From: Gigantopelta aegis
Taxonomy: Eukaryota > Mollusca > Gastropoda > Neomphalida > Peltospiridae
Length of the DNA stretch: 64,000 nucleotides
Direction: 5' to 3'
Assembly: GCF_016097555.1 (NCBI RefSeq)
Contig: NC_054701.1
Span: forward strand, 66,585,598-66,649,597
Under the pieces are notes generated by a model that saw only the letters and a list, made by a program, of their open reading frames with translations, was not told the origin of the DNA and made no database searches. The first letter of the stretch is position 1; each line of letters begins with the position of its first letter. Below are positions 4,291 to 64,000 of the stretch, piece after piece. Position numbers and translations under genes: made by a program.

Positions 4291-4479
4291 GAGGCTGTCC
4301 CCACGACGTGATTAAATCTCCAGTGGATATACTTGTCAAATGGTTTTATTGATTCGTTGTTTTTGGAATTTGTTAAAGATGAACCTGTACAATGTCACAG
4401 AGATTTACCAATGCATGTAATAAAATGAAATATCTGAGCATGAGGATGATTGATTTGATTGCATCTGATTGCAAGTAAC

Positions 4480-5185
4480 ACGGTTAACTTCTTGGTGATC
4501 CTGTGGATGAGGATTTTGATTGCAGCCGACTTCCAGTGACTCAGTTGATACTGTGAATGAGGATTTTGATTGCAGCGGACTTCCAGTAACTCTGTTGTTA
4601 CTGTGAATGAGGATTTTGATTGCAGCGGACTTCCAGAAACTCGGTTGTTACTGTGAATGAGGATTTTGATTGCAGCGGACTTCCAGAAACTCGGTTGTTA
4701 CTGTGAATGAGGGTTTGGTTGCAGCTGACTTCCAGTAACTCGGTTGTTACTGTGAATGAGGGTTTTGGTTGTAGCTGACTTCCAGTAACTCGGTTGATAC
4801 TGTGAATGAGGGCTATGGTTGTAGCTGACTTCCAGTGACTCGGTTGATACTGTGGATGAGGGTTTTGGTTACAACTGACTTCCAGTAACTCGGTTGATAC
4901 TGTGGATGATGATTTTGATTGCAGCAAACTTCCAGTAACTCGGTTGATACTGTGGATGAGGGTTTTCATTGCGGCTGACTTCCAGTGACTCGGTTGATAC
5001 TATGAATGAGGGTTTTGGTTGCAGCTGACTTCCAGTGACTCGGCTGATACTGTGAATGAGGGTTTTGGTTGTAGCTGCCTTCCAGTAACTCGGTTGATAC
5101 TGTGAATTAGGGTTTTGCTTGTAGCTGACTTTCAATAATTTTAATAACCTGGTTAACTTCATGATACTGTGGATGAGGGTTTTAG
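4480..5185. repeat. 50-bp tandem array with a TTGCAG step in many units
   Basis: About 13-14 copies of a 50-bp unit (gactccagtaactcgg-like segment, then ttgatactgtgaatgaggg, then ttttggttgcagctgacttc). The array ends about 180 bp before the first coding exon at 5366. Many units contain a T-rich run followed by CAG, which resembles a 3' splice site. The two minus-strand open frames (4598-4969 and 4869-5162) are repeat translations with a 50-residue (three-unit) period and are not called as genes. Confidence 0.9.
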
Positions 5186-5365
5186 TTGCAGTCAGTATAA
5201 TTTGCTATTATTATTTACGTGTTCCCTTATTTCTTTCCATCAGTATATACGGGTTGAAATATAGAAACAGAGATCCTGACATTCACAAAGATAGATAGAC
5301 AGACAGACAAACGGATCGATAAACTGATTGTATATATGCACATCTTTATAATATTTTACAGAAGA

Positions 5366-8344
5366 ATGCCCGTGATGCTTGATCAACTTTGGTTTGTGGT
5401 GATCATTATCAATCTTGTCAGTGGGGAACTGATCAGCCGCCACGATGACTTCCGTCTGACAACGTGCAGCTCGGACAAGTTGTCACGATTACAGGCGGTC
5501 AGACGGTTTGATGACGTCAGCACTCTTGTGACATGTGCGGTTTATTGTACACACGGAGAATCCTGCAGCGCCATTGCATATGACGTAGTTTCAAAAGACT
5601 GTCAACTTTATGTCGCAAGATCACACAAGGTAAGGAGCAAATTCCATCCGTCCGTAATTCGTATGCGTATATGTCTACCTAATTAATTAACGCATAGAAA
5701 CCCACACTGTACGGAAACGCATAAATGGACTCTTCTCAATCTGTTTTCAAACAAAGTAATACGCATTGCGGATAAAGTATAGGCAAACATACGGATTAAA
5801 GAGCAATGGAAATTTCCCAAAAGGGTACCAAAATATGATCTTTTCAACGAATCAGAGCCCCGTTCCACGAAAGAATCGTTGCTAAGTTTAATTGTAGTGA
5901 CTTACGGATAATTTTACATCTGGCACCGTAACTTTTACATCCATTCAACAAAGCAACCTTACGGTAGTCACAGTGCCCCTTTGACGATTAAAATGTTCTT
6001 AAATAATAAGTTAAATAATACATTGGTTACCGACTACTCGGAACATCTTGGATGTATTCAATGGTACAAACATCCATGCAGTAACTTTGACAGTTTATTT
6101 GTTAAGCGATAATTATCAAATATATAAGACATGAGAGTTATCTCCCATATTTTCGTATGAAGGTCGTATTGCCTAGAACTTTTTTCATCGAGGATACCCG
6201 ATGTTTGGAGTAACGTATACGAATAATTGTCAGCATTCGTGTTGTTCCAAACATTTCATTCCTTCCAAGGCTGTTTAACTTAGCCCGTTTGATTCTGATG
6301 TCTGCTAAATCTTTTCTGCACTCTTGTAGCATGTTAGTTGGTACGGGCACCGTTAAGTTATTTTTTCTATTACCTTGATGTTGTTTAATTTTAAATTTGT
6401 TTCTCTTTACAGGTAGATACGATTGGTCACAATGTAACACATCAAGTCAGATGCTGGGTACGGACCAACACTGCTCCATCTGAAAAAGAAATTAAACCAA
6501 AAGGTAATGAAATGTCTGGGTTGTTGCACACGTTGACTTTAAAGACGTAATACAAATGACGCGGTATAATGTTTAAACAGTGAATATGAAGGTGTTGTGC
6601 CATGCTAAGTGTGATATCATCACTGTTTTGACAGTGGTTCATGAGTGCATACTATCACAGTTGTGTATATGCCATCAGTCTCTGTCCTGTGCATGTTTCG
6701 GTTTTCTAAGCTAGTCTTGGGAATGGCAGTCCTCCTACAGTCATAATGAGATAACACATGTAGGTAAGCATGTTACTGTTTCAAATGCAGGTCAGAACCA
6801 ACATTAACACTTAATATATACTGTATTGTTCACATGCAGTGAATACGTCACTTTTATTGAATGCAGGTTATATACGTTGATCATTTGTACATGAGGCGGA
6901 GTCTGAGTGCAGAATGTCATATTCTATATTTAAATTATTCAAAAGATCTTTATTAATAGTAAGAGTTGTATACCTTGCTTGGATCACAGATCATTGATCA
7001 CTTAACTGAACCAAAATTTAGTTAAGTATGTATATCATATATTTGTTATATAAAGTTAGTGTAAGGTAGTGCTATCAGAACCCCAATCCTGACACTACCA
7101 AATTTGTTTCTGGGGTTAATAAACTTTATTTTTAAAACATAATAATAATTTTAACCAAATTAATAATAATAAATATATAATAAGATCTTTTGGATTAATA
7201 AACCTCTCATCACTTTACCTTTTTCTGTCTGTAAAATGATTTCAACCAACGCCATAATAATTAACTCTGTGCTACTCTTACTATTCTCTTCTTCTTCTTC
7301 TTCTTCGTGTTTCTCTTCACTTTCAATTTGTCCTTCCAGTTAGCTATAGTGAAAATGGTTTACTTATAAATTAAAATCTTGATCTATAAAAGTATGTATA
7401 TTTCTAAAATAAAAGCACAGTTCTTAATATAGGCATTTGCCTTTTGGCCAATCCCAAACCACTTTATTTTGTATTTACGACAATAATATTATTAAACCAA
7501 CCAAAACAAAAATTAAACATTTACTTTATTTGTAGCGAAAAAGGTGCGAATACATGACTACAAATCGCCACTGTTGACAAGACGATTTAAACCTATAAAA
7601 TACTCCAAGACTGAGGTGCCTTGGTTTGGTAATATCATCACGTTCCTAGCCGGGCAGGTCAGCTATCTAGTCACGTTTGATTGGGGAGTTCGACCGAATA
7701 TCTTTCGTATAAGATGCTTCAAAAAAGAAGTGTCATCAGAATCTCTAAAACTGAAATACTTGGCTAGAGACGTCGAGAGGTTGACGGACACACAAGTCAT
7801 CGCCTCAGTGGAATGGAGCAAAGCCGTCATCGTCATAGATGTCTTTCCAACCCTAAAGCTGAACCGAACCATCCAACTAGAGAAAGGTTTCGTCCACATC
7901 GGCGTCCTCAGTGAGGAGCTGGTAGTTCTGGGAGATGGGACAAGACTTTTCCTGCTCAACATGTCTTCATCGGAACTAAGTCCTTCATTTCGTCCGAACA
8001 TTACGTACATTCAGGGCATCGCGATTTCGCCTGACAACAATCTATTGTTGGCTAACAACAAAACATTAATACTGTACTCTATGTCTGGGGATATCATATG
8101 GAAGTACTCATCAGAGATTTACACTGAATATTGCAGGTTTGATGGGATGGGGAATATTGCCGTGGCCAGTTTTATTAGCAAGTATGTTGCACTAATTTCC
8201 GGACAAGGTACCTTCTTAAAAATTATTTTGAAGAAGAATTCTGGGTGGTATAATCGTCCCTCGTATCTAACGTTTGATGAGCTGGGTGATATATACATCT
8301 CGGACATGAAGTCCAATTTAATTATAGCTTACCATTTTTCATGA
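5366..8344 (+). CDS. Secreted PAN/apple-like plus beta-propeller-like protein, three exons
   Basis: Exons are 5366-5629, 6413-6503 and 7536-8344. The introns (5630-6412 and 6504-7535) have GT-AG borders (AAG|gtaagg, ttacag|GT, AAAG|gtaatg, tttgtag|CG). The phases (0, then 1) join without a break to give about 387 residues. Residues 1-20 form a signal peptide (hydrophobic LWFVVIIINLVSG). Residues about 33-85 contain five cysteines in a PAN/apple-like spacing (TCAVYC, ESCSAIAYD, KDCQLY). Exon 3 encodes about 268 residues of NHL/WD-like blades (GDIIWKY, FDGMGNIAV, FDELGDIYISD), suggesting an extracellular recognition protein. The start codon at 5366 is preferred over an in-frame ATG at 5336 because it follows a conserved ttttacag acceptor-like step that is also kept in the decayed copies at 18634 and 58690. 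An upstream non-coding exon is therefore likely. The exact function is unknown. Domain calls are by eye. Confidence 0.72.
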
Positions 8345-10185
8345 TGATTAGTAGCTACTTAAAGGTACAGAGTTCTCTTAAAACAGTTTATGGTATTTTT
8401 GTGGTTAGAATTGTTCATTGCTTAGTCAAGTTTACATATGGAGGGTTTTTTCGTTTCTCTAAAGTTAATAATTTGTTTTGATTAACGACACCACTAAAGC
8501 ACATTGTTTAACTAGCATCGGCTATTGGGATTTAGTGTTCGGTCCGAATATTCGAATATTCGCTCGCTAATTTGCAATTCAAAATATTCTAATAGTATTT
8601 TCAAGCATTCGAATATCTTGTTTTGTTTAGGTCATAGGTGTAAAATGATTGTAAATGAGATGGATAATGCGGTTTCTGTGAGTTCTAAGATCGGTCTTAC
8701 AGATTGTTTGCCACGTGCATTTAGTCGTAGTGCACGGGGCACATTAAGGCAATACTTTTCTTAACGTGCACGGCGAGTTACTTGTTTCTATGTAGCAAAT
8801 TTAAAATAGCCCGGACATTTTTTATGTTTAGTGAGTACAGTAGGATATATATTTTTGGTTTAAATACCAGTTATATATAGAGTATGCAACAAGATCCGGA
8901 CGTAGTAAGAACCACACTAACTACGTCCCTTCGGTAACATAAAGCATGTCTCGAGTTTCACAATACAGTATTTTCTATTTGTAGTGATGGATGATGCGGG
9001 TGAATGAAATTAATAAAACGTGTTTAAATCTACACAAATCAATATGTCGATTTCAAATCCTATAAACAAGAATTAAAACAGAAATTCTAACTTTCTAAAA
9101 TTGATTCATTCAACAGTTGTTGTTTTTTGCAGATATTACAAACTCTTATTAGTCCAGGAGCATTAGGTCCAAACCTGGAATAAATTAGTAACAAACTGAA
9201 CCTTTCAGGAAAGTTGCCCAAGTGTATGTTAAAACACATACCAAACGTTCCCGCAAATCCACGAATAGCTAACTCTGAAATTCAAGATGGTGTCCAAAAT
9301 GGCCACCATTATCTTTTGATCATATCTTTGCAACCATTCATAATAAATATGCTTGTGTCTGAAAACCTATGTTTGGTAATTTTTAAGCTATTACTCCTGT
9401 ACTATCTAAGGGCCATATCCGACGACTAACAAATCAATGTGTTCTAGTGTTGTCGTTAAACAAAACAAACTTTAACTTTAACTGTGTCTACGGGCCAATT
9501 TTATACATTACCAAAAACGAAATTTTGTTTCGAAACCTATTTGACGAGATTATCTTACCAAAATAGATACTGGATAACTAAATTGCCTACGTCAGTTTTA
9601 AGATTGTTTAACATTTCTAGAGAAATCATGCTATGTAAACTTTGTAATACTAAAATTACTGACTGGACATGTTCAAAAATTTAAATATTGAAAATATTAG
9701 ATTTAAAAAAAAAAAAAATCCTTTTTATTTTAGCTTTTGTGAATTGAAAGGTATAGTGTTTGTTTAATACACCATTATTGAAAAACCTCGCTTTATTTAT
9801 TTTTTAAAATATATCTAGTCTTCTGAAATGATAATTCTGACGGCACCTAGTGCAGCTAGAATTAAATGTTTACCCTTCACGATAACGGTATCGGCGAGTG
9901 ATGAGAGATAACTACTTACGGTGATGAGAAGCAATAGGGATTATTAAACAGTTAGGTACACAGGTTGTTTAATTGTCAGTGCAAACAAACTTAATACAAA
10001 CCTATCTCTTTTTCCAGAGTCTTTGGCCCAGATTTTGCTGAGGTTTATCTCTGTTTTTTAGAGCGAGGTTAATAAAGGTGTTGTAGAAGTTTTTAATTGT
10101 ATTATAGATATTACGTATATATGTCAAAAAGGTGAACGTTAATTGATATGTGTTAATTAACTTGTGTTAATTAACGACGAATGTA
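7220..10185 (+). repeat. Tandem duplication, first copy (intron 2, exon 3, 3' flank)
   Basis: This stretch aligns almost throughout with 10633-14850. It covers the end of intron 2 (with a TTC microsatellite near 7290), exon 3 and about 1.8 kb of 3' flank. The 3' flank contains short old repeats: SINE tails at 8485-8520 and 9432-9470, and a TTCGAATATTCG motif block at 8540-8620. No second gene is visible in it. The frame at 9214-9429 is non-coding repeat because the matching frame in the second copy is broken. Confidence 0.85.
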
Positions 10186-10432
10186 TGTGAATATATAAAT
10201 TGTGACCCAACCCAACGCATTGAGACGAACTCTCGCCCTCATGTAAACGGTGGTCAGGTGTCATTTCCCCCGGCTTTCAATAATGTAAATACAACACCGA
10301 TGATGAACACTGCCTCAGCTGGTAACCTACAGTATGCACAACAGATGCACAACTAGAAATCGAAGATGACTTGCCAATTCAGGTAACTGACAGATTAGGA
10401 CCATATAGACCGTAAAACCAAAGACCACGAAC
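10186..10432 (+). other. Unique sequence before the gap with a short Q/N-rich open frame
   Basis: At about 10190 the first copy of the duplication stops matching the second. A frame open from about 10204 to a TAG at 10356 encodes about 50 residues rich in Asn, Gln, Thr and Pro (for example PAFNNVNTTPMMNTA). The compositional bias is unlike the flanking AT-rich DNA and recalls the start of a retroelement gag, but there is no motif to name it. The sequence then runs into the N gap. Confidence 0.3.
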
Positions 10433-10632
10433 NNNNNNNNNNNNNNNNNNNNNNNNNNNNNNNNNNNNNNNNNNNNNNNNNNNNNNNNNNNNNNNNNNNN
10501 NNNNNNNNNNNNNNNNNNNNNNNNNNNNNNNNNNNNNNNNNNNNNNNNNNNNNNNNNNNNNNNNNNNNNNNNNNNNNNNNNNNNNNNNNNNNNNNNNNNN
10601 NNNNNNNNNNNNNNNNNNNNNNNNNNNNNNNN
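10433..10632. other. Assembly gap, 200 N
   Basis: Exactly 200 undetermined bases. A round number usually marks a scaffold gap of unknown or estimated size. The gap sits at the junction of the two tandem copies, so missing exons 1 and 2 of a second gene copy could be hidden here. Confidence 0.98.
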
Positions 10633-10951
10633 GTCTGCAATATGATTTCAACGAACGCCATAATAATTAACTCTTTGCTGCTCTTTTATTTTATTTTTTC
10701 TTCTTCCTCTTCTTCATCTTGTTTTTTCTCTTTACTTTCAGTTTGTCCTTCCAGTTAGCTATAGTGAAAATGGTTTACTTATAAATTGTAATCTTGATCT
10801 ATAAAAGTATGTATATTTCTAAAATAAAAGCACAGTTCTTAATATAGGCATTTGCCTTTTTGCCAATCCCAAACCACTTTATTTTGTATTTACGACAATA
10901 CATATTATTAAACTAACCAAAACAAAAATTAAACATTTACTTTATTTTTAG

Positions 10952-11760
10952 CGAAAAAGGTGCGAATACATGACTACAAATCGCCACTGTTGACAAGACG
11001 ATTTAAACCTATAAAATACTCCAAGACTGAGGTGCCTTGGTTTGGTAATATCATCACGTTCCTAGCCGGGCAGGTCAGCTATCTAGTCACATTTGATTGG
11101 GGAGTTCGACCGAATATCTTTCGTATAAGATGCTTCAAAAAAGAAGTGTCATCAGAATCTCTAAAACTGAAATACTTGGCTAGAGACCTCGAGAGGCTGA
11201 CGGACACACAAGTCATCGCCTCCGTGGAATGGAGCAAAGCCGTCATCGTCGTAGATGTCTTTCCAGCCCTAAAGCTGAACCGAACCATCCAACTAGAGAA
11301 AGGTTTCGTCCACATCGGCGTCCTTAGTGAGGAGCTGGTAGTTCTGGGAGATGCGACAAGACTTTTCCTGCTGAACATGTCTTCATCGGAACTAAGTCCC
11401 TCATTTCGTCCGAACACTACGAACATTCATGGCATCGTGATTTCGCCTGACAACAATCTGTTGTTGGCTTACGACAAAAAATTAGTCCTGTACACTATGT
11501 CTGGGGATATCATATGGAAGTACTTATCAGAGAGTTTTACTCATTATTGCAGGTTTGATGGAATGGGGAATATTGCCGTCGTCAATTTTGTTAGCAAGTA
11601 TGTTTCACTAATTTCTGGACAAGGTGTTTTCTTAAAGATTATTTTGAAGAAGAATTCTGCGTAGTATTATGGTCCCTCGTATCTAACGTTTGATGAGCTG
11701 GGTGATGTATACATCTCGGACAAGAAGTCCAATTTAATTATAGCTTACCATTTTTCATGA
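10952..11760 (+). pseudogene. Second copy of exon 3 with premature stop
   Basis: Aligns codon for codon with exon 3 of the upstream gene, and the splice acceptor is intact. A TGG codon has become TAG at 11662-11664, removing the last 32 residues. The frame continues open after it to a normal TGA at 11758-11760. Residues 1-150 differ from the first copy at four positions, and the next 85 differ at about 19. It may be a decayed duplicate, or an alternative last exon giving a slightly shortened protein. No exon 1 or 2 is seen immediately upstream, but the gap prevents a firm conclusion. Confidence 0.7.
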
Positions 11761-12199
11761 TGATTAGTAGCTACTTAAAGGTACAGAGTTCTTTTAAAAC
11801 AGTTTATGGCATTTTCCATTGCTACAGTCACGTTTACATATGGAGGTTTTTTCCCCGTTTCTCTAAAGTTCATAATTTGTTTTGTTTAACGACACCACTA
11901 AAGCACATTAATTAACTAGCAGCGGATTTAGTGTTCGATCCGAAAATCTGAATTTTCGCTCGCTAATTTGCTAATCGAAATATTCGAATAGTATTTTCAA
12001 GTATTCGAATATCTGGTTTTGTTTAGGTCATATGTGTAAAATGACTGTAAATGAGATGCATAATGCGGTTTCTGTGAGTTCTAAGATCGGTCTTACAGAC
12101 TGTTTGCCACGTACGTGCATTTAGTCGTAGTGCACGGGGCACATTAAGGCAATACGTTTCTTAACGTGCACGGCGAGTTACTTCTCTCTATCTAGTAAA

Positions 12200-12580
12200 C
12201 CGGCCTCGGTGGCGTCGTGGTTAGGCCATCGGTCTACAGGCTGGTAGGTACTGGGTTCGGATCCCAGTCGAGGCATAGGATTTTTAATCCAGATACCGAC
12301 TCCAAACCGTGAGTGAGTGCTCCGCAAGGCTCAATGGGTAGGTGTAAACCACTTGCACCGACCAGTGATCCATAACTGGTTCAACAAAGGCCATGGTTTG
12401 TGCTATCCTGCCTGTGGGAAGCGCAACTAAAAGATCCCTTGCTGTTAATCGGAAAGAGTAGCCCATGAAGTGGCGACAGCTGGTTTCCTCTCAAAATCTG
12501 TGTGGTCCTTAACCATATGTCTGACGCCATATAATCGTAAATAAAATGTGTTGAGTGCGTCGTTAAATAAAGCATTTCTT
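12200..12580 (+). mobile_element. SINE, full length, 13-bp target duplication
   Basis: The element has a tRNA-like head (A box near gtggcgtcgtggttaggc, B box gggttcggatcccagtcg), the common SINE body (catggtttgtgctatcctgc, then aaaagatcccttgctg) and the tail gtgttgagtgcgtcgttaaa. It is flanked by an exact 13-bp repeat (tctatctagtaaa at 12187-12199 and 12581-12593). The first copy of the tandem duplication lacks it near 8790, so it inserted after the duplication. Confidence 0.95.
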
Positions 12581-13463
12581 TCTATCTAGTAAATTTGAAA
12601 TGGCGTGGACATTTTTTATGTTATTGGTGGAGGATTTATTTTGTTAATAATGATGCAAGTACTTCAATCGGGATTTCGTGAGTACAGTAAATTATACATT
12701 TTTGGTTTGTGTGTCCATTTGTTGCACTATTTCGGTTTAGAAACGATTGAAACATGGTGCCACAAGTTTTGAATACCAGCTATATATAGAGTATGTAACA
12801 AGATCTGGACGTAGTAAGAACCACACTAACTACGTCCCTCTGGTCTAATGTAGTCGGTAACATGAAGCATGTATCGAGTTTCATAATACAGTATTTTTAT
12901 TTGTAGTGACGGATGATTGCGGTGAATGAAATTCATAAAACGTGTTTAAATCTACACAAATCAATATGTCGATTTCAAATCCTATAAACAAGAATTAAAA
13001 CAGAAACTCTAAGATTAATTAATTCAACAGTTGTTGTTTTTCTCAGATATTACGAACTCTTATTAGTCTAGGTGCATTAGGTCCAAACCTGGAACAAATT
13101 GGTAACAAACTGAACTTTTCTGGAAAGTTGCCCTAGAGTATGTTAAAACACATAACAAAAGTCCCCGCAAATTCACGAATAGCTAACTCGAAAATTTAAG
13201 ATGGTGTCCAAAATGGCCACCATTATCATGTGATCATATCTTTGCAACCATTCATAATAACTATGCCTGTGTCTGAACACCTATGTTTGGTCATTTTCAA
13301 GCTATTAACCCTGGACTATCTAAGGGCCATATCCAATGATTAACAAATCAACATGCTCTAGTGTTTTCGTTAAACAAAATAAACTTTAACTTTGTCTTGG
13401 GGCCAATTTTATACATGACCAAACACGAAATTTGGCTTCGAAACCTATTTGACGAGATTATCT

Positions 13464-14207
13464 CCTTTTTTTTCTTCTTTTTTAAAATTTTATTGTCCAC
13501 AGAATATAAAAAGGCAGTGTCAGGGTTGGGGTGCCCTGAGTTCACTGTCTCACAATATTTTTTTAATTTCATATGATATACACAGTTTTATATACATACA
13601 TATAAATGGCAAAATATATACACACGAATAGATATAATCCACACATTTTATGTATATTGTTGTTGTTGATATTTTTTTTTTTTTTTTTTTTTATTAATTT
13701 TTTTTAAATTATTATTTTCTGGGTCCAAGAAGGAAAAAAAAAGAAAAAGGAGAAGATGTTATGTATGGAATTAGTATTGATACAAGAAAGTATTATAAAA
13801 AGATGTGTGAAGGAGTATAAAGTGCGAAGAAGGTATTTTAGAAATAAATATATCTCAATATTTAATAAACTTTTATGATGTTTGAAATAAATTATACCAC
13901 TGCTCCCATACTGTCTTGAAATCTTCATAATTACCATTTTTATATAAGATACATTTTTCAGTTTCCAACTTTTCTTTAATTATAGTTTTTAAGGCAGAGA
14001 AGTTTAATTTTTGTTTTTGTATTTTCATGGAATAAATATAATATTTTATGTTAATAATTAACCAATTTATTGCATATGTATTTGTTGTTTTAAGCAGACC
14101 CAAAATGGCAATATGTTTATATAAAATTATGCACTCTTCTATAGTATTGAATATCCAGTTTGTAATATCTTTCCAAAATTCTTTAACATAGCAACAATCA
14201 TAAAATA
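13464..14207 (-). mobile_element. 5'-truncated L1/Tx1-type LINE, minus strand
   Basis: The flanks are gacgagattatct (13451-13463) and gacgtgattatct (14208-14220), a 13-bp target-site duplication with one mismatch. On the minus strand the first part is open and encodes the C-terminus of a LINE ORF2 (LFYDCCYVKEFW, INWLIINIKYYIY), ending at 13873. It resembles the end of the LINE at 49047-54985 (LFYYYNKVTDLW, INWLLINIKYYMY). A 3' UTR of about 400 bp with a cagggcaccccaaccctg-like segment and an A-rich end follows. Both LINEs share this 3' segment, so they belong to one family. Confidence 0.85.
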
Positions 14208-14998
14208 GACGTGATTATCTTACCAAAATATATACTGGATAACTAAATTTTCTACGTCAAGTTTAAGATTGTTTAACATTTCTAGAGAAATCATGCTATG
14301 TAAACTTTGTAATACTGAAATTACTGATTGGATACCATTATTAACCAATTGTAAAAATTGAAATATTGAAAATATTCGAAGAATTGTTTTTTTTTTCCTT
14401 TTTATTTTAGCGTTTGTGAAATGAAAGGTATTGTGTTTGTTTAATGCACCATTACTGAAAAACCTCGCCTTATTTATTTTTAAAAATATATCTAGTCTTC
14501 TGAAATGATAATTCTGGCGGCACTTAGTGCAGCTAGAATTAAATGTTTACACTTCACGGTAACGGTATCGGTGGGTTATGAGAGATAACTACTTAAGGTG
14601 ATGAGAAGCAATAGGGATTATTAAACAGTTAGGTTCACAGGTTGTTTAATGGTCAGGTGCAAACAAACTTAATAAAAACCTATCGCTTTTTCCAGAGTTT
14701 TTGGCCCAGATTTTGCTGAGGTTTATCTCTGGGGTTTTAGAGCGAGGTTAATAAAGGTCTTGTCGCAGTTTTTAATTGTATTATGGATATTAGGTATATA
14801 TGTCAAAAAGGTGAACGTTAATTAATGACTAATGTATGTGTTGTTAATTAGCTGCTGAATAAACGCTGTTCACACCAAAGATAGTACTGTTGTAAATAGT
14901 TTACAGTGGTGATCAAACCTTGTAAACTGGTGTTTTTTCGTTACACTTTTTAGCTATTTTTATATTCTTTGTTGTTGTGTGTTATTGTCATGTATTTG

Positions 14999-15667
14999 TT
15001 AACTATGTATTTGTATTGTCCCTTTGTTACATATTGTAATGTGTCTAACTGTTGTTAACTATGTATTTGTATTGTCCCTTTGTTACATATTGTAATGTGT
15101 CTAACTGTTGTTAACTATGTATTTGTATTGTCCCTTTGTTACATATTGTAATGTGTCTAACTGTTGTTAACTATGTATTTGTATTGTCCCTTTGTTACAT
15201 ATTGTAATGTGTCTAACTGTTGTTAACTATGTATTTGTATTGTCCCTTTGTTACATATTGTAATGTGTCTAACTGTTGTTAACTATGTATTTGTATTGTC
15301 CCTTAGTTACATATTGTAATGTGTCTAACTGTTGTTAACTATGTATTTGTATTGTCCCTTTGTTACATATTGTAACTAACTGTTGTTAACTATGTATTTG
15401 TATTGTCCCTTTGTTACATATTGTAATGTGTCTAACTGTTGTTAACTATGTATTTGTATTGTCCCTTTGTTACATATTGTAATGTGTCTAACTGTTGTTA
15501 ACTATGTATTTGTATTGTCCCTTAGTTACATATTGTAATGTGTCTAACTGTTGTTAACTATGTATTTGTATTGTCCCTTTGTTACATATTGTAATGTGTC
15601 TAACTGTTGTTAACTATGTATTTGTATTGTCCCTTTGTTACATATTGTAATGTGTCTAACTGTTGTT
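14999..15667. repeat. 56-bp tandem satellite, about 12 copies
   Basis: The unit is ttaactatgtatttgtattg, then tccctttgttacatattgta, then atgtgtctaactgttg. Copies are almost identical. One is shortened by about 8 bases near 15375, and two, separated by four units, share a cccttagttac variant (near 15300 and 15530). Low divergence implies recent expansion or homogenisation. The array abuts the SINE at 15669. Confidence 0.95.
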
Positions 15668-15668
15668 C

Positions 15669-15987
15669 AGGGGGCGGGATTTAGCTCATTCGGTTGAGTG
15701 TTCGCTTGAGGTACGTCCGTCGCAGGATCGAACCACCTCAGTGGATCCATTCAGTTGACTGGATTTTTTCTCGTTCCAACCAGTTCATCACAATGGAACA
15801 AAGGCTGTGGTATGTGCTTTCGTGTCTGTGGGAAAGTGCATATAAAAAATCCCTTGTTGCATTGGGAAAACTGTAGTGGGTTTCGTCTAAGGACTACGAG
15901 TCAGAATTACCAAATGTTTGACAACCAATAGCCAATGACCAATTAATCAATTTGCTCCAGAGGCGTCGTTAAACAAAAAAAAACCCT
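15669..15987 (+). mobile_element. SINE with a different tRNA-like head
   Basis: The head reads gatttagctcattcggttga (A box) and ggatcgaaccacctc (B box), unlike the heads at 12200 or 58995. The body (tggtatgtgctttcgtgtct, aaaaaatcccttgttgcatt) and a tail with caatagccaatgaccaatta and a gcgtcgttaaac end follow. A reverse copy of the same SINE type with the same downstream neighbour occurs at 41810-42530. Confidence 0.9.
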
Positions 15988-17717: not shown

Positions 17718-18633
17718 TAATAGATGAATGCTAATTAATAACGTGTTTCTCAAAGTTACTCGGTGCATCGTAAATTAAGCTATAGCTTACCATATAACGC
17801 TGATCACTCCCTGGATCTCGGTCAGCACACACCCTACCCCCCCCCCCCCCCCCCCTTCCCCCAATGTCTATTTACTTGCTCGGTGCCTGTTATGGAGATT
17901 CCACCACGTTCTTTCTAACTCCGGTAAGTGTTTTTACATACAATTATGTTCTGTTCTGGAGACTGGGTTCATAACAGGCGTGATTAAACGGTGAAGAGGT
18001 GTAAGCACCTGTCAAATGATTGATTGATTCGCTGTCTGTTTGGAACAAAGCATGTAAAAGACGTACCCGCCGCGCTTGTAGACGGTAATTGTTATTCAAG
18101 ATGTTCTTTACAGAAAGTTCAACTAGTTATACATTATCTTAAATGAAAAAAACACCAAGATTAACGTTTCATGTCAAAACTGAAGAAGTTGGTTAAACAG
18201 TTAAAGTTAAGAACATATTCGACTATGACATGCGTATGTGTGTGTCAGTCTGTTTGTCTGTGTGTGTGCATGCGTGTGTGTTTGTGTGTTTTAAAATGGT
18301 GTTTTCGCTCTCATGAAGAGCTGGGTTTTAATCAGATATAACTGATAATTAAATTAGTGTCTAACCATAGTTTAGTTAAAGACGTAATATTTTATTGTTA
18401 GCTGGATTAATTAGCCTAAGCTACCTGGAAAATGTAAAGAAGCTGAATTAATTTCATGTATTGTATCCAGAACTTTAATATTATTAAGTAACACATCATA
18501 TAACACTAATTTCGAATTATCAATTTATATATAAATGTGTTGCGAAAGCCGTTGTCCGTGAATATCGTCCAGTCAGACAGACAGACAGACAGACGAAGTG
18601 ATTGATTATGTATTGACTGTATTTTACAGAAGG
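17718..18633 (+). repeat. Second copy of the region upstream of the PAN exon
   Basis: This segment parallels 3700-5365 in the intact gene. It has a single unit of the 57-bp array (17888-17935), a shared stretch cctgtcaaatg..ttgattcg near 18008-18032, a (CAGA)n run and then the ttttacag step before the ATG. It also matches 57328-58689 (third copy) and the minus strand of 46170-46455 and 48991-49040 (inverted copy). Confidence 0.75.
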
Positions 18634-18890
18634 ATGTCATTGATGTTTAGTTCACTTTGGTTCGTGATGATGGCTGTCATCTTATCTTGTCAGTTGCGAA
18701 CCGACCAAGCGTCGTGAATACGTCCGTATGACAACGTACACCCCGAACACATCGTCAGGGTTACAGGCTGTCCGACGGTTTGATGACGTCAGCACTCTTC
18801 TTTCGTGTGCACTTTATTGTACACACGAAGACAACTGCAGTCGATGACTATGACGTAGTTTCAAAACACTGTCGACTTCATGTCGTAAGG
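18634..18890 (+). pseudogene. Decayed copy of PAN-type exon 1
   Basis: The ATG at 18634 follows the same ttttacagaagg context as the intact exon at 5366. The hydrophobic signal segment (SLWFVMMAVI) is kept. Several indels follow, so the frame breaks at a TGA near 18715. Matches to the intact exon resume out of phase: cggtttgatgacgtcagcac near 18774, then ttttattgtacacacgaa-like and gacgtagtttcaaaa segments. The sequence is cut at about 18890 by a DNA transposon, before the exon's donor site. It is a pseudogene fragment and no downstream exons were found for it. Confidence 0.85.
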
Positions 18891-23853: not shown

Positions 23854-25305
23854 CTACTTCCGGACTCCTAGAATCCAAACCCCCTCTTCCAAATGATCAC
23901 GATTCTGGACAACCCAACTTTCAGGAATCTCCAACCACTCATACAATTTTAAATGATCAACATGAACCACGATTGGTTTGTTTCTCGGTGTTTTCTGAAT
24001 CTGAACAGTGACATCACACAACATACCCAACACTTTATAGGGACCTGTCCAATCCATCCCCATCCCCAACGCCAAACAAAACTATCTGTAACAAACTTTC
24101 GTGATTTTAACCCACGGTCATAATTTAACTTTTGCCTGAGGGTACTTTTACCTAAGTGTTCTTTTGCAAACTAGAAAGAGTTTCTCAAACTATTCTCCAG
24201 CCATGCCATATACTGAACCTGACAAGGCTGAGTTTCTTTATTTGGAGGATTTCCAACCATCAAGTCAATTGGAAACGTTATTTCATGTCGAAACATAAGA
24301 AGATTAGGACTACAGCCAGTACTGTCATAAACCGACGCTCGATACACCATCAAAACATATGGAATATGATCATCCCAATCATCACGGTTTTCATTAACAA
24401 AAACAGATAACATTTGTTTTAAAGTTCTATTAAACCGCTCGACTAAGCCATCTGACTGTGGTCGATATGGACATGTTCTCGTTTTTTCTATGCCAAGTTT
24501 TTCACAAAGATGTTTAAATAAATGGGAGTCAAATTCAGCACCCTGATCTGTGTGAATTTGAAGAGGAACTCCAAAACGACAAACGAATTCGTTCACAAGC
24601 TTGTCCACAACTGTTAAAGCATTATGACAAGGAATAGGATAAGCCTCCTTCCATTTCGAAAAGTAGTTGGCTATAACCAAAATATATTCATTTCCATTTT
24701 CTGTTATTGGACAAGGACCAATAATATCAATTCCAATCCTGTCCAAAGGAGCTCCCACTTCGGACTGTTTCAGAGGTGATTTGCCTAAACCTGGACCTGG
24801 CTTACTCTTTGAACACTGATCACACAAACGACACCATCTTCCTACATCAGTAGACATACCAGGCCAAAAAACCTTCTCTAATAGCTTCTCGACCCAAATG
24901 ACCAGCTATACGACTGTTATGTAATAGTGTCATAATCTTTGAGCGAATTTCCCGAGGAGCAACGAACTGTAATATCTCCTCACCCTCATTTCCTTTACTC
25001 CATTTATGATATAAAAAACCATCCTGTACAATTATAGATTCCCAACGACTCCAAAGTGACCTAACAGCCGGGGAATTACCAGCAATGACAACTGCTGGTG
25101 GCTTGTTTTCATATCTAGACTTTAATTGTACTATATCATTTATTTCATCACCATTTGTCTGCCAACTTCTAATTTGTTTTGGATTCCATACATGAAGCCA
25201 GTTTGGTAAAACATCATCATTCACCAAATCATTATCAACAGTTTTGTCAACTGAATTTGAATTTAGACTTCTATTTACAGTGTTACCAAAAACAACTGGG
25301 GCCAC
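23854..25305 (-). pseudogene. Gypsy-type integrase
   Basis: The HHCC zinc-binding domain is split between two frames (LHNSRIAGHLG near 24920, then WCRLCDQCSKSK near 24825), with a frameshift at about 24850. The DDE core is in 24171-24857: IGIDIIGPC, IHTDQGAEFDS and GLVERFNRTLK supply D, D and E. A C-terminal GPYKVL..VVHVDHLKLYE segment at 23854-24075 is the usual post-core domain. It would insert the DNA copy. It is broken by at least two frame changes. Confidence 0.88.
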
Positions 25306-25363
25306 AAAAGAAACTTTGTCCCCTTTACAATGGTGTTTAAGACAATCAGGACAATTATCTCTT

Positions 25364-27504
25364 TTACACTTTCTGAAAGGTCTTCTCGACTAAATAAGTA
25401 AAGTCATAAGTCTCTTGTACTGTTAACCAACAAGCTAACATTCCTTCTAGCTCTTTAAAAAATTTAAGCCATGTAAGAGCAGCTTGGTCAGTTCTTACAA
25501 TAAACTGTCGATCCCAAAGAAAATGTCTGAATTGTTTCACAAATGTTACTACAGCTAATAACTCTCGCAACGTTGTGCAATAACGTTGTTGAGTCCTGCT
25601 AAGAGTTTTCCTAGCATAAGTAATGACATGTTCTTCTCCATTTTGAACCTGAGACAGAACAGCACCAATACCATGCAAGCTAGCATCTGTGTCTAAAACA
25701 AAATACCCACCCGTTTCAGGAAACGACAAAATCGGTGCTGTTATCAATAAATGTTTAAGTTTCTCAAAAGCTTCCTGACACTCAGAACTCCAAACAAACT
25801 TCTTTGATTTACATGTAAGATCAGTAAGTGGTCCACTGACACTGGAAAAGTTAGGAATGAACTTCCTGTAGTATCCTGCTAAACCAAGAAAACTCTTAAT
25901 TTCAGAGACAGAAGATGGAATAGGCCAATCCCTAACAGTTTGCACTTTTACTGGGTCACACTTAATTCCTTCCCCAGAGATTACATGACCTAAAAAATTA
26001 ACTTCGGTTTTAAACAGGAAACACTTTTTTGGCTTTAACTTTAAATTTGCTTTTTTAAATCTGGCAAAAACCATTCCAAGATTTTCCAACTTGTGTTGTC
26101 AAAATCTGACCCAAACACTATGATATCATCAAGGTAACACAGACAACGTTCCCACTGTAACCCACGCAATACAAGGTCCATAAGTCTTTCGAAACATGCT
26201 GGTGCATTGGATAAACCAAATGGTAAGACTTTAAATTGATATAGACCATTCTGGGTTACAAAAGCTGTTTTCTTTTTATCCTTCTCAGCCATGGGACACT
26301 GCCAATACCCTATTGCTAAATCTAATGTGTTAAACCACTTTGCCCAGATAATGCTTCAAGACAGGAATCTATCCGAGGCAATAGATATGCATCCTTTTGG
26401 GTAATTGCGTTCAGTTTTCTATAATCAACACAAAACCTAACAGACCCATCCCGTTTTGTGACTAATATTATCGGAGCAGCCCAAGGAGTATCACTGGGTT
26501 CTATTATGTCATCCCATAACATTTTCTCAATTTCATCCTTAGCCACTTTCTTTTGTGTTTGTGTTAATCTGTGAGGTGGAAGTTTAATTGGTCTCGCTGT
26601 ATTTATAGTGTGTTCAACTAAATCAGTTATCCCCAACTTTCTATCTGAACCAACAAAAACATCCTGATTTTCAATTATGAAATCTTTCATCTTGTCCGAA
26701 ACATTATTGAGCAAAGACTGTAAATGTTCAGGTACTTGCTTCGAACTAAGCTTATTTCTTTCAGTACCTCTAACAGCCATGCTATACGTCGAACTATCAT
26801 TACTGATTGATTGAACAACTTGAACAGAAGCTATTCTAGCATGTTTCTTGAGGTGTATTGGTTTATCGGTGATATTTATAACCGACAAAGTGAGGTTTTC
26901 CTTATTTTTGACACTTATCAAGGTTCTTGTCAACAACAATCCCCTTCTACCTAGACTTGTATATGGTTCCACCAAACCATCCACACTGTTTCCTAGATTT
27001 CCCTCAACACAACCAGAGATAAACATCTCAGACTCGGGAGGAATAACTACATGTTTTATTTTTATTCTAGCACAGGTGTACGTTTTTCCATGTCAGTTTC
27101 ACTATCTGTCCTGACATACTCAAAATACCTCTTAAAATGTTAATCATTATATCATTTTCCTCAAAGAAATCCATTCCAAAAATGCCATCAAGATTTCCAA
27201 GTATAGCCATCAAGACCTCTTGTTCACAAACAAAATTTCCTAACACAAAAGGTATTGTTATTTTACCCAACACATCCATGTCTCTACTATCAGCGGTGTT
27301 AAGCACTGTCTGAACCTCTTGAAGAGGTGGCCTATTTTCTCCCAGGTTATTGTACACCCTCTCTGAGAGTAAACTTACTGAAGAACCTGTGTCCACTAAC
27401 ATTAAAATAGACATATTCTCCAGTAGTGTTGGGGCAAACAAACACGGCTGTGTAATACCATCTGTGTTACATTTTGGCCTTTTCTCCTGTCCCCTATCTT
27501 TCAC
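25364..27504 (-). pseudogene. Gypsy-type pol: protease, reverse transcriptase, RNase H
   Basis: The protease is at 27067-27504 with the aspartic active site VDTGSSVSLLS and a later GIFGMDF. Reverse transcriptase runs from 27026 (PWAAPIILVTKRDGSVRFCV), through YQFKVLPFGLSNAPACFERL, to the catalytic YLDDIIVFG near 26120. The thumb follows with FLGLAGYYRKFI. RNase H (25720-25400) has DTDASLHGIGAVL, RELLAVV and RTDQAAL. Frameshifts near 26335 and 26090 make it non-functional as it stands. It copies the element's RNA into DNA and removes the RNA strand. Confidence 0.88.
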
Positions 27505-40310: not shown

Positions 40311-41349
40311 TTCTATATATACTCTTCAAAAGAAGAAACACAAAACCACATTGTCGTAACATTTGGAGAATTGATTTAATTATTGAATGGTGAGTCCGAT
40401 AATTACCAAATGTTGCAGGATTGTTCACAATTCACTCTAGTCCATTGTGAGTAAGTGATAGGACACACCACCAAGGTCAAGGTCATCTGGAGTCAATACG
40501 CAGTTTGCCGCATAACGTTCACCACGACACCTATACACGCGACATCTTCCATCATGACGTCGGAGCAGAAATCGGGACTCGTCACTGAACCACACCTGTC
40601 TCCATCGCAGTTGAGGCCATTGTCGATGAATCTGGCACCACTGCAGTCGGAGTCGACGGTGTTGTGGTGTTAAGATGACACCTCGAACTGGACGTCTGGC
40701 ACGAATTCCTACCTCACGTAGGCGGTTCCGTACGGTCTGGTCGGATATCCTGCGCAAACCTGGTATTGCTGCGGCTGTGGAGGTGGCAGTAGTCAATCGT
40801 TCCCGAAGGTGGCGTACCCGGATGTAGCGGTCCTGCCCGGGGGTAGTGACCCGTGGTCGACCGGATCTAGGGAGGTCACGTGTTGATCCATGTTGCTGGT
40901 AACGGTCCCACAGTCTGGAGATGGTGCTTGGGGACACATGGAATGCCCTGGCAACGGCCGTTCTGGATACGCCTGCGTCTAGTCGGCCGATGGCATTGTT
41001 TCTCTGCGGTTCACTGAGACGTGGCATGTTCTGGATTGTCAACTGTCGGCCAGATACAGAGGCCAGGCAAGCGAACACCCTGCACTTTTATACTGTCGGT
41101 GTTCATGTTGCACGTGCAGACAACGCACGTGCAGTGGTGACATGGTTTGCACGTGGCTGCGTTTTTGCGAATATTCACATTTTGGAACTTTATTGTACAG
41201 TAGCTGCGTTTTATCGAATGTAACCGTGGGAATGTGTTTGGGACATGCAATGACCTTATATTCACAAAGCATGAACCGGTAGGAAACATAAAATCGGAGT
41301 TATAACCCATTTGTACCCTTTTGCGTTTCTTTTTTTTAAAGAGTATATA
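40311..41349 (-). mobile_element. Internally deleted Tc1-like element with intact N-terminal half
   Basis: The TIRs (tatatactcttcaaaagaag at left; tatatactctttaaaaaaaa on the minus strand at right) sit next to TA on both sides. The minus-strand frame 41078-40437 keeps the paired helix-turn-helix DNA-binding region (VARAFHVSPSTISRLWDRYQ; SDQTVRNRLREVGI) and the first catalytic Asp (FSDESRFLL). After residue about 195 the frame passes into deleted sequence and stops at 40437, so the second Asp and the Glu are missing. It could bind TIRs but not cut DNA. Confidence 0.85.
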
Positions 41350-43197: not shown

Positions 43198-44440
43198 TCA
43201 GATTGTTTTTTCCAGAGACATTATGTTTAGGTCATAAGGCTGTAAAATTAAACTCCACCTTAATAATCTCTGATTCTTAGACTTAAATTTCTTCAAAAAA
43301 ATTAATGAATTGTGATCAGTTTTAACTGTCACATTGCCTGTACCACAAGACACGTAAACCTCAAAATGCTGAATTGCAAGAACTAACCCTAAGGCTTCTT
43401 TTTCAATAGTTGAATAAACGTTTTGGTGTTTGTTTAATTTCTTGGAAAAGTAATCGACCCCTTTTTCATCAACCTGTAGCAAAACTGCTCCTACACCAAC
43501 ATCACTGGCATCAATCGCAAGCTTAAATGGCTTTTGGAAATTTAATGCCATCAAAACAGGTTCACTAGACAGAACTGCCTTTAACTGATCAAAAGCATGC
43601 TCACAAGATTCTGACCAATTAAATTTTACATTCTTTTTCAGCAAGTTCGTAAGTCGTTCTGCTAAATCAGCAAAATTTAGCACAATTTTGCAATAGAACC
43701 CACACATGCCTAGAACGTGTAACAATTCCCTTTTATTGGTAGGATCGGGTAACTCAACTATAGCTTTAATTTTTGCAGACCGAAGGAACACCTTTCCTTG
43801 ACCTACGATGTGCCCTAAGTAGCACACATGACCTTGAGCAATCTCACTCTTAGCCAAATTAATCACCATCTTTGCACAAGTAAGTCTCTCAAAAAACTGC
43901 ATAAGGTGAGTTTTCCAGTCATCACTGAAAACCACCACATCATCAATATATGTAACACAAAAATCTAAGTCCTTAGTCACTTGATCCATTAACCATTGAA
44001 ATGTGGCGGGAGCATTCTTCATACCAAACAGCATAACCTTACTTTGATACAAGCCGTTTGGAGTTAAGAAGCTGACACCTCCTTTGCTTTATCTGTAAGG
44101 GGTACTTGCCAGTAACCTTTCAACAAATCAAATTTAGTTACAAATTTTGTATTACCTATTTTATCTATGAATCTTCTATTCCGGGAATGGGGTAAGAATC
44201 AGTTTTACTTACAGTGTTTACCTTTCTGTAATCGATACAAAATCTGGATGTACCATCTGGTTTTGGAATCAAAACAATCGAAGAACTCTAACTACATGAA
44301 CTCGGTTCAATGATGTTGTGATCTAGCATGTACTTAATTTCCTTTTGAACGTGAGCACACCTTTCTGGATTCATTCTGTAAGGATGTTTTTAATGGGACG
44401 ATTATTGTCAACATCTACATCATGAACAACAAGAGGCGTA
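43198..44440 (-). pseudogene. Gmr1-like reverse transcriptase and RNase H
   Basis: The N-terminal RT part near 44400-44060 is readable in several frames (VLIPKPDGTSRFCIDYRKVN, KFDLLKGYWQVPLT), with stops near 44288 and 44180 and a frameshift near 44070. The open frame 44052-43198 carries MKNAPATFQWLMD, the catalytic YIDDVVVFSDDW, the thumb (LHVLGMCGFYCKIV), and RNase H with LAIDASDVGVGAVL, EKEALGLVLAI and KTDHNSLIFL. The C-terminus ends within a few residues of the RNase H domain, as expected if no integrase follows. Confidence 0.85.
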
Positions 44441-49946: not shown

Positions 49947-51475
49947 GAACAAAAAAAGAAACTTCCGATTTGTACATATAGTATTTGTTGTGTTAAAGAA
50001 TTCATTGTGTAATGAAATTATATAGGTAGTATTAGCCTTGAGCTGTATTATCAGGATTCATGAATTTTATCGATTATTTTTGCACTGTTAATCGTCGACA
50101 ACGTGAAATTCAATTTGCACATGCATGCATGGTTCGACATGTCCCGTGTAGTATTCGGTCAATTTGTTTTACTTGTCTTACTGACATTGTTGTCAAGTGA
50201 ACGAAAACGCTTCAAAATTTGTAAATAAATTAACGTTTTTTACATTGTAGCATTTTTAGTATGCAAAGAATACCCAATAATTTACGCGAACGGGCGATTG
50301 GCATGCTTGATGCTGGCATGTCGACACAAGACGTTGCAAGGCATGTTGGGAGTTCTACTCGAGCGATACGAAATCTTCGCGTAAGATTTCAAACGACAGG
50401 AAGCACCAACGACTTGCCACCTCGTGGACGTACGCGTGTTACAACACATGGTCAAGACCGCTATATCATGAACACGCATTTGCGCAATCGATTCCAAACT
50501 GCCACTGCTACTGCTGCTAACACACCTGGGCTTCGCAATAACCGAATCAGTGGGCAAACTGTTCGTAATCGTCTGCGGGAGAACGGTTTACATGCACGAC
50601 GTCCTTACGTCGGATGCGTTTTAACGCAACGTCATCGTCTAAATCGTCTTAATTGGGCACGTGTACACACTCGTTGGATACGGCGACGCTGGAATACCGT
50701 TTTTGTTTCGGATGAATCCCGATTTTCTTTACAACGTGGTGATGGCAGGGTGCGCGTCTACCGTTGGAGAAATGAACGCTATGCTGACTGTTGTGTTCTT
50801 GAACGAGATCGTTTCGGGGGTGGGGGTTCTGTCATGGTCTGAGCAGCCATTGCCCATGGTTATCGTTCACCACTAGTCGTCATTGATGGCAATTTAAATG
50901 CTCAACGTTACCGCGATGACATTCTCGCTCATCACGTCATTCCTCTGTTCCATAACAACGCCAACATCTCGATTTTTTAGCATGATAATGCCACCAGCTA
51001 GAAACACTGTAAATTTCCTTAGGACAAATAACATTGATTTCATTGATGACTGGCCCTCTAAAAGTCCTGATCTCAACCCCATCGAGCATGCCTGGGATAG
51101 TCTAGACAGACGATTGAGGCGTCGTCCCAACCCACCCGCTAACGTCAACGAACTTCGTCAAGCGCTCATTCAGGAATGGAACAATATTCCACAGGCAGAA
51201 ATCAACACTTTAGTCAATTCTATGCGCCTGCGATGCACTGCAGTGGTCAATTCAAGAGGTGGTCATACCAGTTATTAAGTGGGTGTTTTTATTTTTATCC
51301 CCTACCACACTTGGTCAAAATTTCTCCCAGTTTCTGTTAACCTATGGCCATGATTTTTGCACCAAACGATGCATCATGGAACACTCTTTAAACGCATATA
51401 TAACACTTATTCCCCTGGTTTGTTTTCATCAAGTTATGTTCAAGCAAAATTAGCGGAAGTTTCTTATTTTGTTCA

Positions 51476-52949: not shown

Positions 52950-53234
52950 TGAATGAATGAATGAATGAATGTTTAACGATACCCCAGCACGAAAAATATA
53001 TCGGCTGTTGGGTGTCAAACCATGGTAATGCAAATAAATAAAGCGATGATCAACATCAATATAAAAATTCAAGACCTAAACAAACACAGTGTAAAGAACT
53101 GTGCAAAAACACAAATATCACAGAATTTTACGGATACTGAATTTTAATCAAAACTTAATTTTGTGCTGTATTGGCCATTCTCAAAGAGAATGTTACACCC
53201 CTGCACAACGGTGAGGTTACAGCACACGCAGGGG
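52950..53234 (-). mobile_element. SINE-like element with ATTC tail, minus strand, in LINE ORF2
   Basis: Flanked by an exact 13-bp repeat (ggttaataaggaa at 52937-52949 and 53235-53247). On the minus strand it ends gtgctggggtatcgttaaac followed by a CATT-repeat tail. Related tails occur at 57897-57977 and 455-489. Removing it restores the LINE frame. The head (plus-strand right side, 53190-53234) is not a clear tRNA. Confidence 0.88.
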
Positions 53235-54421
53235 GGTTAATAAGGAAGTTAACTGTCTTAGGAAGAATAATCGTATTAAAAACACTAATAATACCTAAAA
53301 TTACATATTTACTAACTGCACTACCAAATTCATCCAAAAAAGAAGTTGACAATTTGAATAGATTATTTCATAAATTCATTTGGCAAAATAAACCCGATAA
53401 AATAAAACGACTCTTATTAGCTCAAGAAGGCGGATTACAAATGTTAAATATATATAATTTCATGATTAGAGACCTTGTAATAAATGGAGATTATTATTTG
53501 AATATAAAAAGAAAGAAATTAAAAAACATGTTTTGGAAAGATGTTTTATACAGTTGGGACTTAATTCAACAAAAACAAATTTGGAAAAAAATAGAAGACA
53601 TTTTAAGCTCAAATATTTGGTACAACAGCAATATAACAATAAATACAAAACCATTCTGTTATAAAAATTATCTAGAAAAGGGAATAATATTTATAAACGA
53701 TCTTCTTGATGAAGATAGAAATGTCTTTACATTTGAGAAATTAAAAAATATATATAACGTAAACTCACACTTTTTAGAATATTCATCGTTTATAAACAGC
53801 ATTAAGACATTTATAAATAAAGCAGACAATGTTAGAAATGACCACTTTACATTGCTAACTAATCCTGTATTTCCGGTAAAATTTAATATTATTCTTAAAA
53901 GTCAAACAGGTATTAAAGACAGATATAAATTATTAAATCACGAAATTATTACACCACCATCACAAATAAGATGTAGAAATCAAGGTTTTGCTTTTGACTC
54001 AAAAGAATGGGGAAACTATTATAAGGTGCCTTTTATAAGTCTCAAACATACAACTTTGATATGGTTTCAATACAGAATTATACACCAGATACTAACAATT
54101 AATACTTTTTTACATAAAATTAAATACATAAATACTAATGAATGTACGTTCTGTGGCAGTTCACCAGAAACATTAACACATTTATTTTACTATTATAATA
54201 AAGTGACTGATCTGTGGCATGCTGTTGTAAATTGGATTTTAAATAAAAAAGGAATTCGAATAAAATTAAATAAAACAATTATTTTATTTGGACAAATAGA
54301 CGATATGAAAGACATATTTATAAACTGGCTGTTAATAAATATTAAATATTATATGTACAAGACAAAAATAGAAAAAAATGAAATAAATATAATAGCTGCT
54401 CAAAATTTTTTTGCAAAATAA

Positions 54422-63900: not shown

Positions 63901-64000
63901 AGTACTGTACTGATGGGCGTGTTCGAAACCCTAGTGGTATATGGTCACGTTAAACTAGTTATCTATCTATCTATCTATCTGTGTCGTATAAAGCTCACAC
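63901..64000. repeat. LINE-type 3' motif and (TATC)n microsatellite
   Basis: gaaaccctagtggtatatgg is shared with 37488-37507. It is followed by six TATC steps (63959-63980) at the window edge. Confidence 0.6.

What the first reader, a model, noticed from the sequence alone, without database searches (positions are those of the whole stretch)
7536..11760. Duplicated last exon with a sharply bounded block of amino-acid-changing differences
By eye, exon 3 copies differ at about 10 of 456 bases in 7544-8000, with four replacements. They differ at about 29 of 250 bases in 8001-8250, where only about five changes are silent. The last 93 bases have four differences, and the flanks right after the stop are again nearly identical. 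An excess of replacement changes confined to the C-terminal blades suggests diversifying selection, or conversion of the 5' half, in a secreted recognition-type protein. This is the pattern expected of immune or gamete-recognition loci.
Basis: seen in the sequence. Interest (0 to 1): 0.85.

Follow-up and report, generated by a model that had tools for sequence, protein, structure and literature searches.

The report
Broken second copy beside assembly gap
Two copies of a snail gene's last exon do differ unevenly, but the more different block changes at the neutral rate, one copy has an early stop codon and the pair straddles an assembly gap, so this looks like an ordinary broken duplicate or an unmerged second haplotype and not like an arms-race gene.

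Summary
The counts are right; the headline reading is not supported. The window is Gigantopelta aegis, a vent snail. Copy A (exon 3, 7536-8344) ends a three-exon gene for a 387-aa PAN plus NHL-propeller-like protein. Copy B (10952-11760) is exon 3 only, has an in-frame TAG at 11662-11664, and follows a 200-N run (10433-10632); A/B similarity starts at the first base after it. In 8000-8250 there are 21 replacement and 8 silent differences; ML omega is 1.01 (0.5-2.5 inside the 95% interval), NG86 omega 0.69. The block differs at 30 of 251 sites, like the 3' flank (169 of 1795, p = 0.21). The odd stretch is the similar one, 7329-7982 (14 of 654), which reaches into the intron (0 of 2000 shuffles as low), as expected of gene conversion or recombination. 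Against LOC121391875 the block is not the faster part (omega 0.37 against 0.55). Whether B is a broken tandem paralog or a second haplotype left unmerged cannot be settled without reads.

The parts
5366..5629 (+). Exon 1 of gene A: hydrophobic N-terminus (signal peptide not tested) and PAN-like domain
   Evidence: Joins in frame with exons 2 and 3; PAN_1 22.8 bits, cut-off 21.4; matches LOC121391875 at 68% aa
6413..6503 (+). Exon 2 of gene A
   Evidence: Frame and splice signals; matches LOC121391875
7536..8344 (+). Exon 3 of gene A (copy A), NHL-propeller-like, intact
   Evidence: NHL 16.4-17.4 bits, below the cut-off of 20; TRIM2 NHL chains E 3.7e-6 with the two-sequence profile
7329..7982 (.). 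Low-divergence tract (end of intron 2 and 5' half of exon 3), 14 of 654 differences; counterpart in B about 10744-11398
   Evidence: Best-fitting tract, 2dlnL 51.3 against at most 16.0 in 40 shuffles; 0 of 2000 shuffles as low
8000..8250 (+).
   Evidence: 30 of 251
10433..10632 (.). Run of exactly 200 N between the copies, the only N run in the window; read as a scaffold join
   Evidence: a second 200-N run in the 264 kb examined
10952..11760 (+). Copy B: exon-3-like, AG acceptor kept, no exons 1-2 seen
   Evidence: exon-1 search of the assembly finds A itself at 100% and then 83% and less
11662..11664 (+). In-frame TAG in copy B where A and LOC121391875 have TGG; cuts off the last 32 residues
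8345..10189 (.). 3' flank of A shared with B (11761 to about 14838); ends in a dispersed repeat (9826-10189)
10190..10432 (.). A-only end of the left contig; leaves the dispersed repeat in mid-element; most of it (10255-10432) has 96-97% copies on other chromosomes
12182..12575 (.). 394-base insertion present in B only, with flanking target-site duplication read by eye
13456..14212 (.). 757-base insertion present in B only, with flanking target-site duplication read by eye
18620..18889 (+). Exon-1 relic of a further family member, frame broken
   Evidence: 77.7% DNA identity to exon 1 of A over 274 columns; protein match in two frames

Best explanation
Copy B is a broken second copy of the last exon of gene A and its 3' flank. 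A and B have drifted apart at about the neutral rate, and a gene-conversion or recombination event made about 650 bases (end of intron 2 and 5' half of exon 3) alike again. The block 8000-8250 is the part of the exon outside that tract and shows background divergence with replacement and silent changes in neutral proportion. Shown: uneven divergence, omega near 1, block equal to flank, stop codon in B, tract crossing into the intron, 200-N run between the copies. Inferred: that conversion or recombination made the tract, and that B is non-functional. Open: B is either a true tandem paralog whose 5' exons are lost or lie in the gap (about 55%) or a divergent second haplotype left unmerged at a contig join (about 40%).
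For: Omega in the block 1.01 by ML, 0.69 by NG86. Block 30 of 251 against flank 169 of 1795, p = 0.21; 10 of 64 overlapping 251-base flank windows are at least as different. Low tract 14 of 654, 0 of 2000 shuffles as low. Intron end 3 of 149 against flank, p = 0.0008; intron end and exon silent sites together 9 of 261 against flank, p = 0.0006. TAG in B. No second exon 1 near 90% in the assembly. Two other broken relatives nearby. A against LOC121391875: omega 0.37 in the block, 0.55 in the 5' part.
Against: The 5' exon part taken alone shows purifying selection (4 replacement, 6 silent, p = 0.017; omega 0.26, p = 0.044), and its silent sites alone are not significantly below the flank (6 of about 112, p = 0.18), so constraint may explain part of the low exon divergence. 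Replacement:silent ratios of 5' part and block do not differ clearly (p = 0.12; 0.055 with the exon end added). Changes that can be placed with LOC121391875 fall on A at 13 sites and on B at 10, in the block 10 and 5 (my recount; 21 of 44 sites cannot be placed and that relative is only about 50% identical), so the drift is not confined to broken copy B. Omega up to 2.5 is not excluded.
Confidence: 0.8

Rival explanations
1. False duplication: A and B are two haplotypes of one locus, left as overlapping contig ends joined by 200 N. The tract is then allelic recombination and B a stop-bearing allele. This is one of the two origins allowed under the best explanation, and it would remove the duplication itself.
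For: Similarity to A begins at the first base after the gap. A matches B up to 10189 and then leaves a dispersed repeat in mid-element, which B and the six loci compared (L011-L016) continue, and ends 243 bases later. Both of the two 200-N runs in 264 kb have like sequence across them, the other at 97.6% reaching both contig ends. No second exon 1. Assembly by Canu and wtdbg2, 3D-DNA in diploid mode; the word haplotig does not occur in the main text (PMC7895826, passages). Gaps between the pair are a listed sign of false duplication (PMC9516828, passages).
Against: 9.4% flank divergence against a reported species diversity of 0.0025 (PMC7736800, passages); insertions of 394 and 757 bases in B only. 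At the other 200-N run part of the sequence has a further copy about 7-8 kb before the gap (95.5%), so that match may be a repeat. The neighbourhood holds other true relatives.
Confidence: 0.38
2. Diversifying selection on the C-terminal blades of a recognition protein.
For: 21 replacement to 8 silent changes in the block; 11 of 19 replacements in the block cross rough physico-chemical classes of my own; dN above dS in 1 of 15 windows; the last 90 bases have 4 replacement and no silent changes (p = 0.37).
Against: Omega about 1 or below; replacement rate equals flank rate, p = 0.52; N excess test p = 0.85; B is truncated; family comparison shows no excess in the block.
Confidence: 0.05
3. Purifying selection alone: the 5' half of exon 3 is constrained in both copies, the 3' half is not, and no conversion took place.
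For: Omega 0.26 in 7538-7999, p = 0.044; silent sites there not significantly low, p = 0.18.
Against: The intron end is low as well, 3 of 149; against LOC121391875 the 5' part is not the more constrained one (omega 0.55 against 0.37).
Confidence: 0.08
4. Alternative last exon: exons 1-2 of A are spliced to exon 3 of A or of B, giving a second, shorter protein.
For: B keeps the AG acceptor and the phase, so exons 1-2 of A read in frame into it.
Against: Stop 32 residues early; omega about 1; the 3' flank is copied along with the exon. No transcripts were available to test it.
Confidence: 0.03

Closest known systems
LOC121391875 of Gigantopelta aegis (P0001, uncharacterised)
   Same: Same gene family and exon order; 54% identity to A over the whole protein; lies about 55-62 kb downstream of A
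   Different: Exon 3 intact with an extra upstream exon; about 50% identical in exon 3
NHL beta-propellers (TRIM2, TRIM3, TRIM71, Thin) and PAN domains
   Same: Profile of A and P0001 matches TRIM2 NHL chains at E 3.7e-6 over profile positions 319-431; PAN_1 just passes its cut-off
   Different: NHL repeats stay below the Pfam cut-off; pairing of PAN with a propeller and secretion are my reading, not tested
Heterotype false duplications in genome assemblies (PMC9516828, abstract and passages)
   Same: Pair adjacent on one scaffold with a gap between
   Different: Read depth and k-mers not available here; divergence is high for this species
Tandem duplicates with gene-conversion tracts and pseudogenes (general knowledge; listing only)
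   Same: Mosaic divergence, broken copies in a local family
   Different: Nothing that sets it apart was found

Membership tests
Locus under diversifying selection | dN/dS clearly above 1 in the block | tested here: not met
   ML omega 1.01, NG86 0.69; 0.5-2.5 inside the 95% interval, 0.4 and 3 outside
Locus under diversifying selection | Block faster than neutral flank | tested here: not met
   30 of 251 against 169 of 1795, p = 0.21
Gene-conversion tract | Sharply bounded low divergence that also covers non-coding sequence | tested here: met
   7329-7982, 14 of 654, with intron part 3 of 149 next to the exon
Gene-conversion tract | Direction and donor, or tract variation between individuals | not testable with these tools
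   One assembly only
Pseudogene (copy B) | Disrupted reading frame | tested here: met
   TAG at 11662-11664
Pseudogene (copy B) | No functional transcript | not tested
   No RNA data were at hand
False heterotype duplication | Gap between the pair on one scaffold | tested here: met
   200 N at 10433-10632
False heterotype duplication | Half read depth and one-copy k-mers | not testable with these tools
   No reads
PAN domain protein (gene A) | PAN_1 above its curated cut-off | tested here: met
   22.8 bits against 21.4
NHL propeller protein (gene A) | NHL repeats above the cut-off or a propeller fold | tested here: inconclusive
   16.4-17.4 bits against 20; TRIM2 E 3.7e-6; model mean pLDDT 44.1

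The most novel reading that the evidence does not exclude
A and B are deeply divergent haplotypes (about 9% in non-coding flank, in a species of low average diversity) of a PAN-propeller gene, kept apart by balancing selection, one allele being truncated.
Probability: 0.04. Interest if true: 0.5.

Novelty: new member of a known kind. Interest (0 to 1): 0.1.

Why it matters
Mainly as a caution: when two copies share one low-divergence tract, the untouched remainder looks like a selected hotspot, and in this assembly 200-N joins can separate apparent duplicates. A claim about selection or gene-family growth at this locus needs a check with reads first.

Tried and rejected
Diversifying selection was tested by NG86, by a pairwise ML codon model and against the non-coding flank, and is not supported. 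Purifying selection alone is not favoured because the intron end is low too. Scattered sequencing error is not favoured, since the block has the divergence of the long flank and no indels. More 200-N joins could not be sampled, so that argument rests on two joins. The structure model of A, made from two sequences, was poor (mean pLDDT 44.1, pTM 0.41), and I ran no fold search. Protein searches gave LOC121391875 alone or nothing (exon 3 only); one search missed even LOC121391875, so its silence, and with it the apparent lack of relatives in other species, is weak evidence. The 2296-base search scored 40 of 3187 candidates, mostly dispersed repeats, so I rely on the exon-1 search (15 of 15 scored). 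The paper search for Gigantopelta with PAN domain or NHL listed three papers, none on this gene by title; the search on conversion of tandem duplicates was seen as a listing only.
Full report
What the sequence is. The protein search returned one relative, LOC121391875 of Gigantopelta aegis, on a contig of 96,789,575 bases, the length of the scaffold that holds this window. The paper on that genome reports 1.15 Gb and 15 pseudo-chromosomes (PMC7895826, passages); G000 has 1,149,253,464 bases.

The gene. Exons 5366-5629, 6413-6503 and 7536-8344 join in frame to 387 residues. PAN_1 passes its curated cut-off narrowly. Exon 3 matches NHL repeats below the cut-off, and the two-sequence profile with LOC121391875 matches TRIM2 NHL chains at E 3.7e-6. 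The AlphaFold model is poor, with a strand-rich C-terminal part as the better region. A signal peptide is my reading of the N-terminus and was not tested. The gene belongs to a small local family: A, B, an exon-1 relic at 18620-18889, LOC121391875 about 55-62 kb downstream, and a degraded copy some 25-30 kb beyond that, with a truncated exon 3 and a stop in its first exon.

Check of the observation. The unevenness is real: 0 of 2000 shuffles have a 654-column stretch as similar as 7329-7982 (14 differences; lowest shuffle 26). The best-fitting tract gives 2dlnL 51.3, against at most 16.0 in 40 shuffles.

What is unusual is the similar part. The non-coding 3' flank differs at 169 of 1795 sites and the far intron at 19 of 160; the block, at 30 of 251, is like them (against the flank p = 0.21). 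Ten of 64 overlapping 251-base flank windows are at least as different as the block. Outside the low tract all 2000 shuffles hold a 251-column window at least as different as the block, and the most different real window has 37 differences (reached by 475 of 2000 shuffles). The low tract covers the end of the intron as well as the 5' half of the exon, which points to conversion or recombination more than to selection on the protein. Some purifying selection in the 5' exon part is also indicated (4 replacement to 6 silent, p = 0.017; omega 0.26, p = 0.044), and its silent sites alone are not significantly low (p = 0.18); with the intron end added they are (9 of 261, p = 0.0006).

Selection test. 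In 8000-8250, NG86 gives 21 replacement and 8 silent changes, dN 0.116, dS 0.168; the ML codon model gives omega 1.01, kappa 2.56. On a grid, 0.5 to 2.5 lie inside the 95% interval, 0.4 and 3 outside. B's stop codon was left out. In 1 of 15 sliding windows of 150 bases dN exceeds dS (7988-8137, 0.129 against 0.101); I did not test the windows for significance. In the last 90 bases there are 4 replacement and no silent changes (p = 0.37). Replacement:silent ratios of the 5' part and the block differ with p = 0.12, or 0.055 with the exon end added. Against LOC121391875, dN/dS is 0.37 in the block and 0.55 in the 5' part for A, 0.38 and 0.51 for B, with silent divergence of about 0.8-1.0, close to saturation. 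So the family gives no sign that the block is a fast region.

Copy B. It has TAG at 11662-11664 where A and LOC121391875 have TGG. Exons 1-2 were not found for it: in the assembly the exon-1 stretch matches itself at 100%, then LOC121391875 at 83% and the relic at 75%. By my recount, 13 of the 44 differing sites can be placed on A and 10 on B, in the block 10 and 5; 21 cannot be placed, and the outgroup is distant. A and B are equally far from LOC121391875. So A has drifted in the block as well, which does not fit a picture of drift in the broken copy alone; a recent stop in B, or weak constraint on both, would fit.

Real or assembly? The right-hand sequence starts at its first base with similarity to A at 7227. 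The left-hand one matches B up to 10189, then leaves a dispersed repeat in mid-element, while B and the six loci compared (L011-L016) continue, and ends 243 bases later; most of that end has 96-97% copies elsewhere. This is the layout of two overlapping contig ends with an insertion in one. Both of the two 200-N runs in the 264 kb examined have like sequence across them, the other at 97.6% reaching both contig ends, though part of that sequence has a further copy 7-8 kb before the gap. A 5,000-N run directly upstream of the window was not followed. Against two haplotypes stand the 9.4% flank divergence and B-only insertions of 394 and 757 bases with target-site duplications read by eye, in a species with reported diversity of 0.0025 (PMC7736800, passages). 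False duplications are said to concentrate in more divergent regions and to show gaps between the pair (PMC9516828, abstract and passages). I put a true paralog at 55% and haplotypes at 40%; the conclusion on selection does not depend on which.

Verdict. An ordinary broken second copy with a conversion tract, or an unmerged haplotype; no evidence for an arms-race locus.

Noticed in passing
G000:C3:66732853-66733052 (window position 147256): Another 200-N run: the last 1776 bases before it match the first 1781 after it at 97.6%, so the contig ends overlap or share a repeat.
   Followed up: partly
63913-64000: The first exon of the LOC121391875 protein model matches at the end of the window and runs past it.
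   Followed up: partly
14869-15680; 4396-5215; 2429-2914: Three minisatellite-like arrays with spacings of about 56, 50 and 38 bases.
   Followed up: no
9826-10189 and 14503-14918: Dispersed repeat present at many places in the genome (54 matches listed for the stretch); intact in B, cut off in A.
   Followed up: partly
24171-26089, 40437-41078, 43198-44052, 50261-50842, 53171-54421: ORFs that by eye look like integrase, reverse transcriptase, transposase and LINE-type fragments (not searched).
   Followed up: no
L005 and L006 (G000:C2303, 19,872 bases): Two more distant relatives (27-28% identity) on one short unplaced contig; the L005 frame passes the NHL cut-off (24.4 bits against 20).
   Followed up: partly
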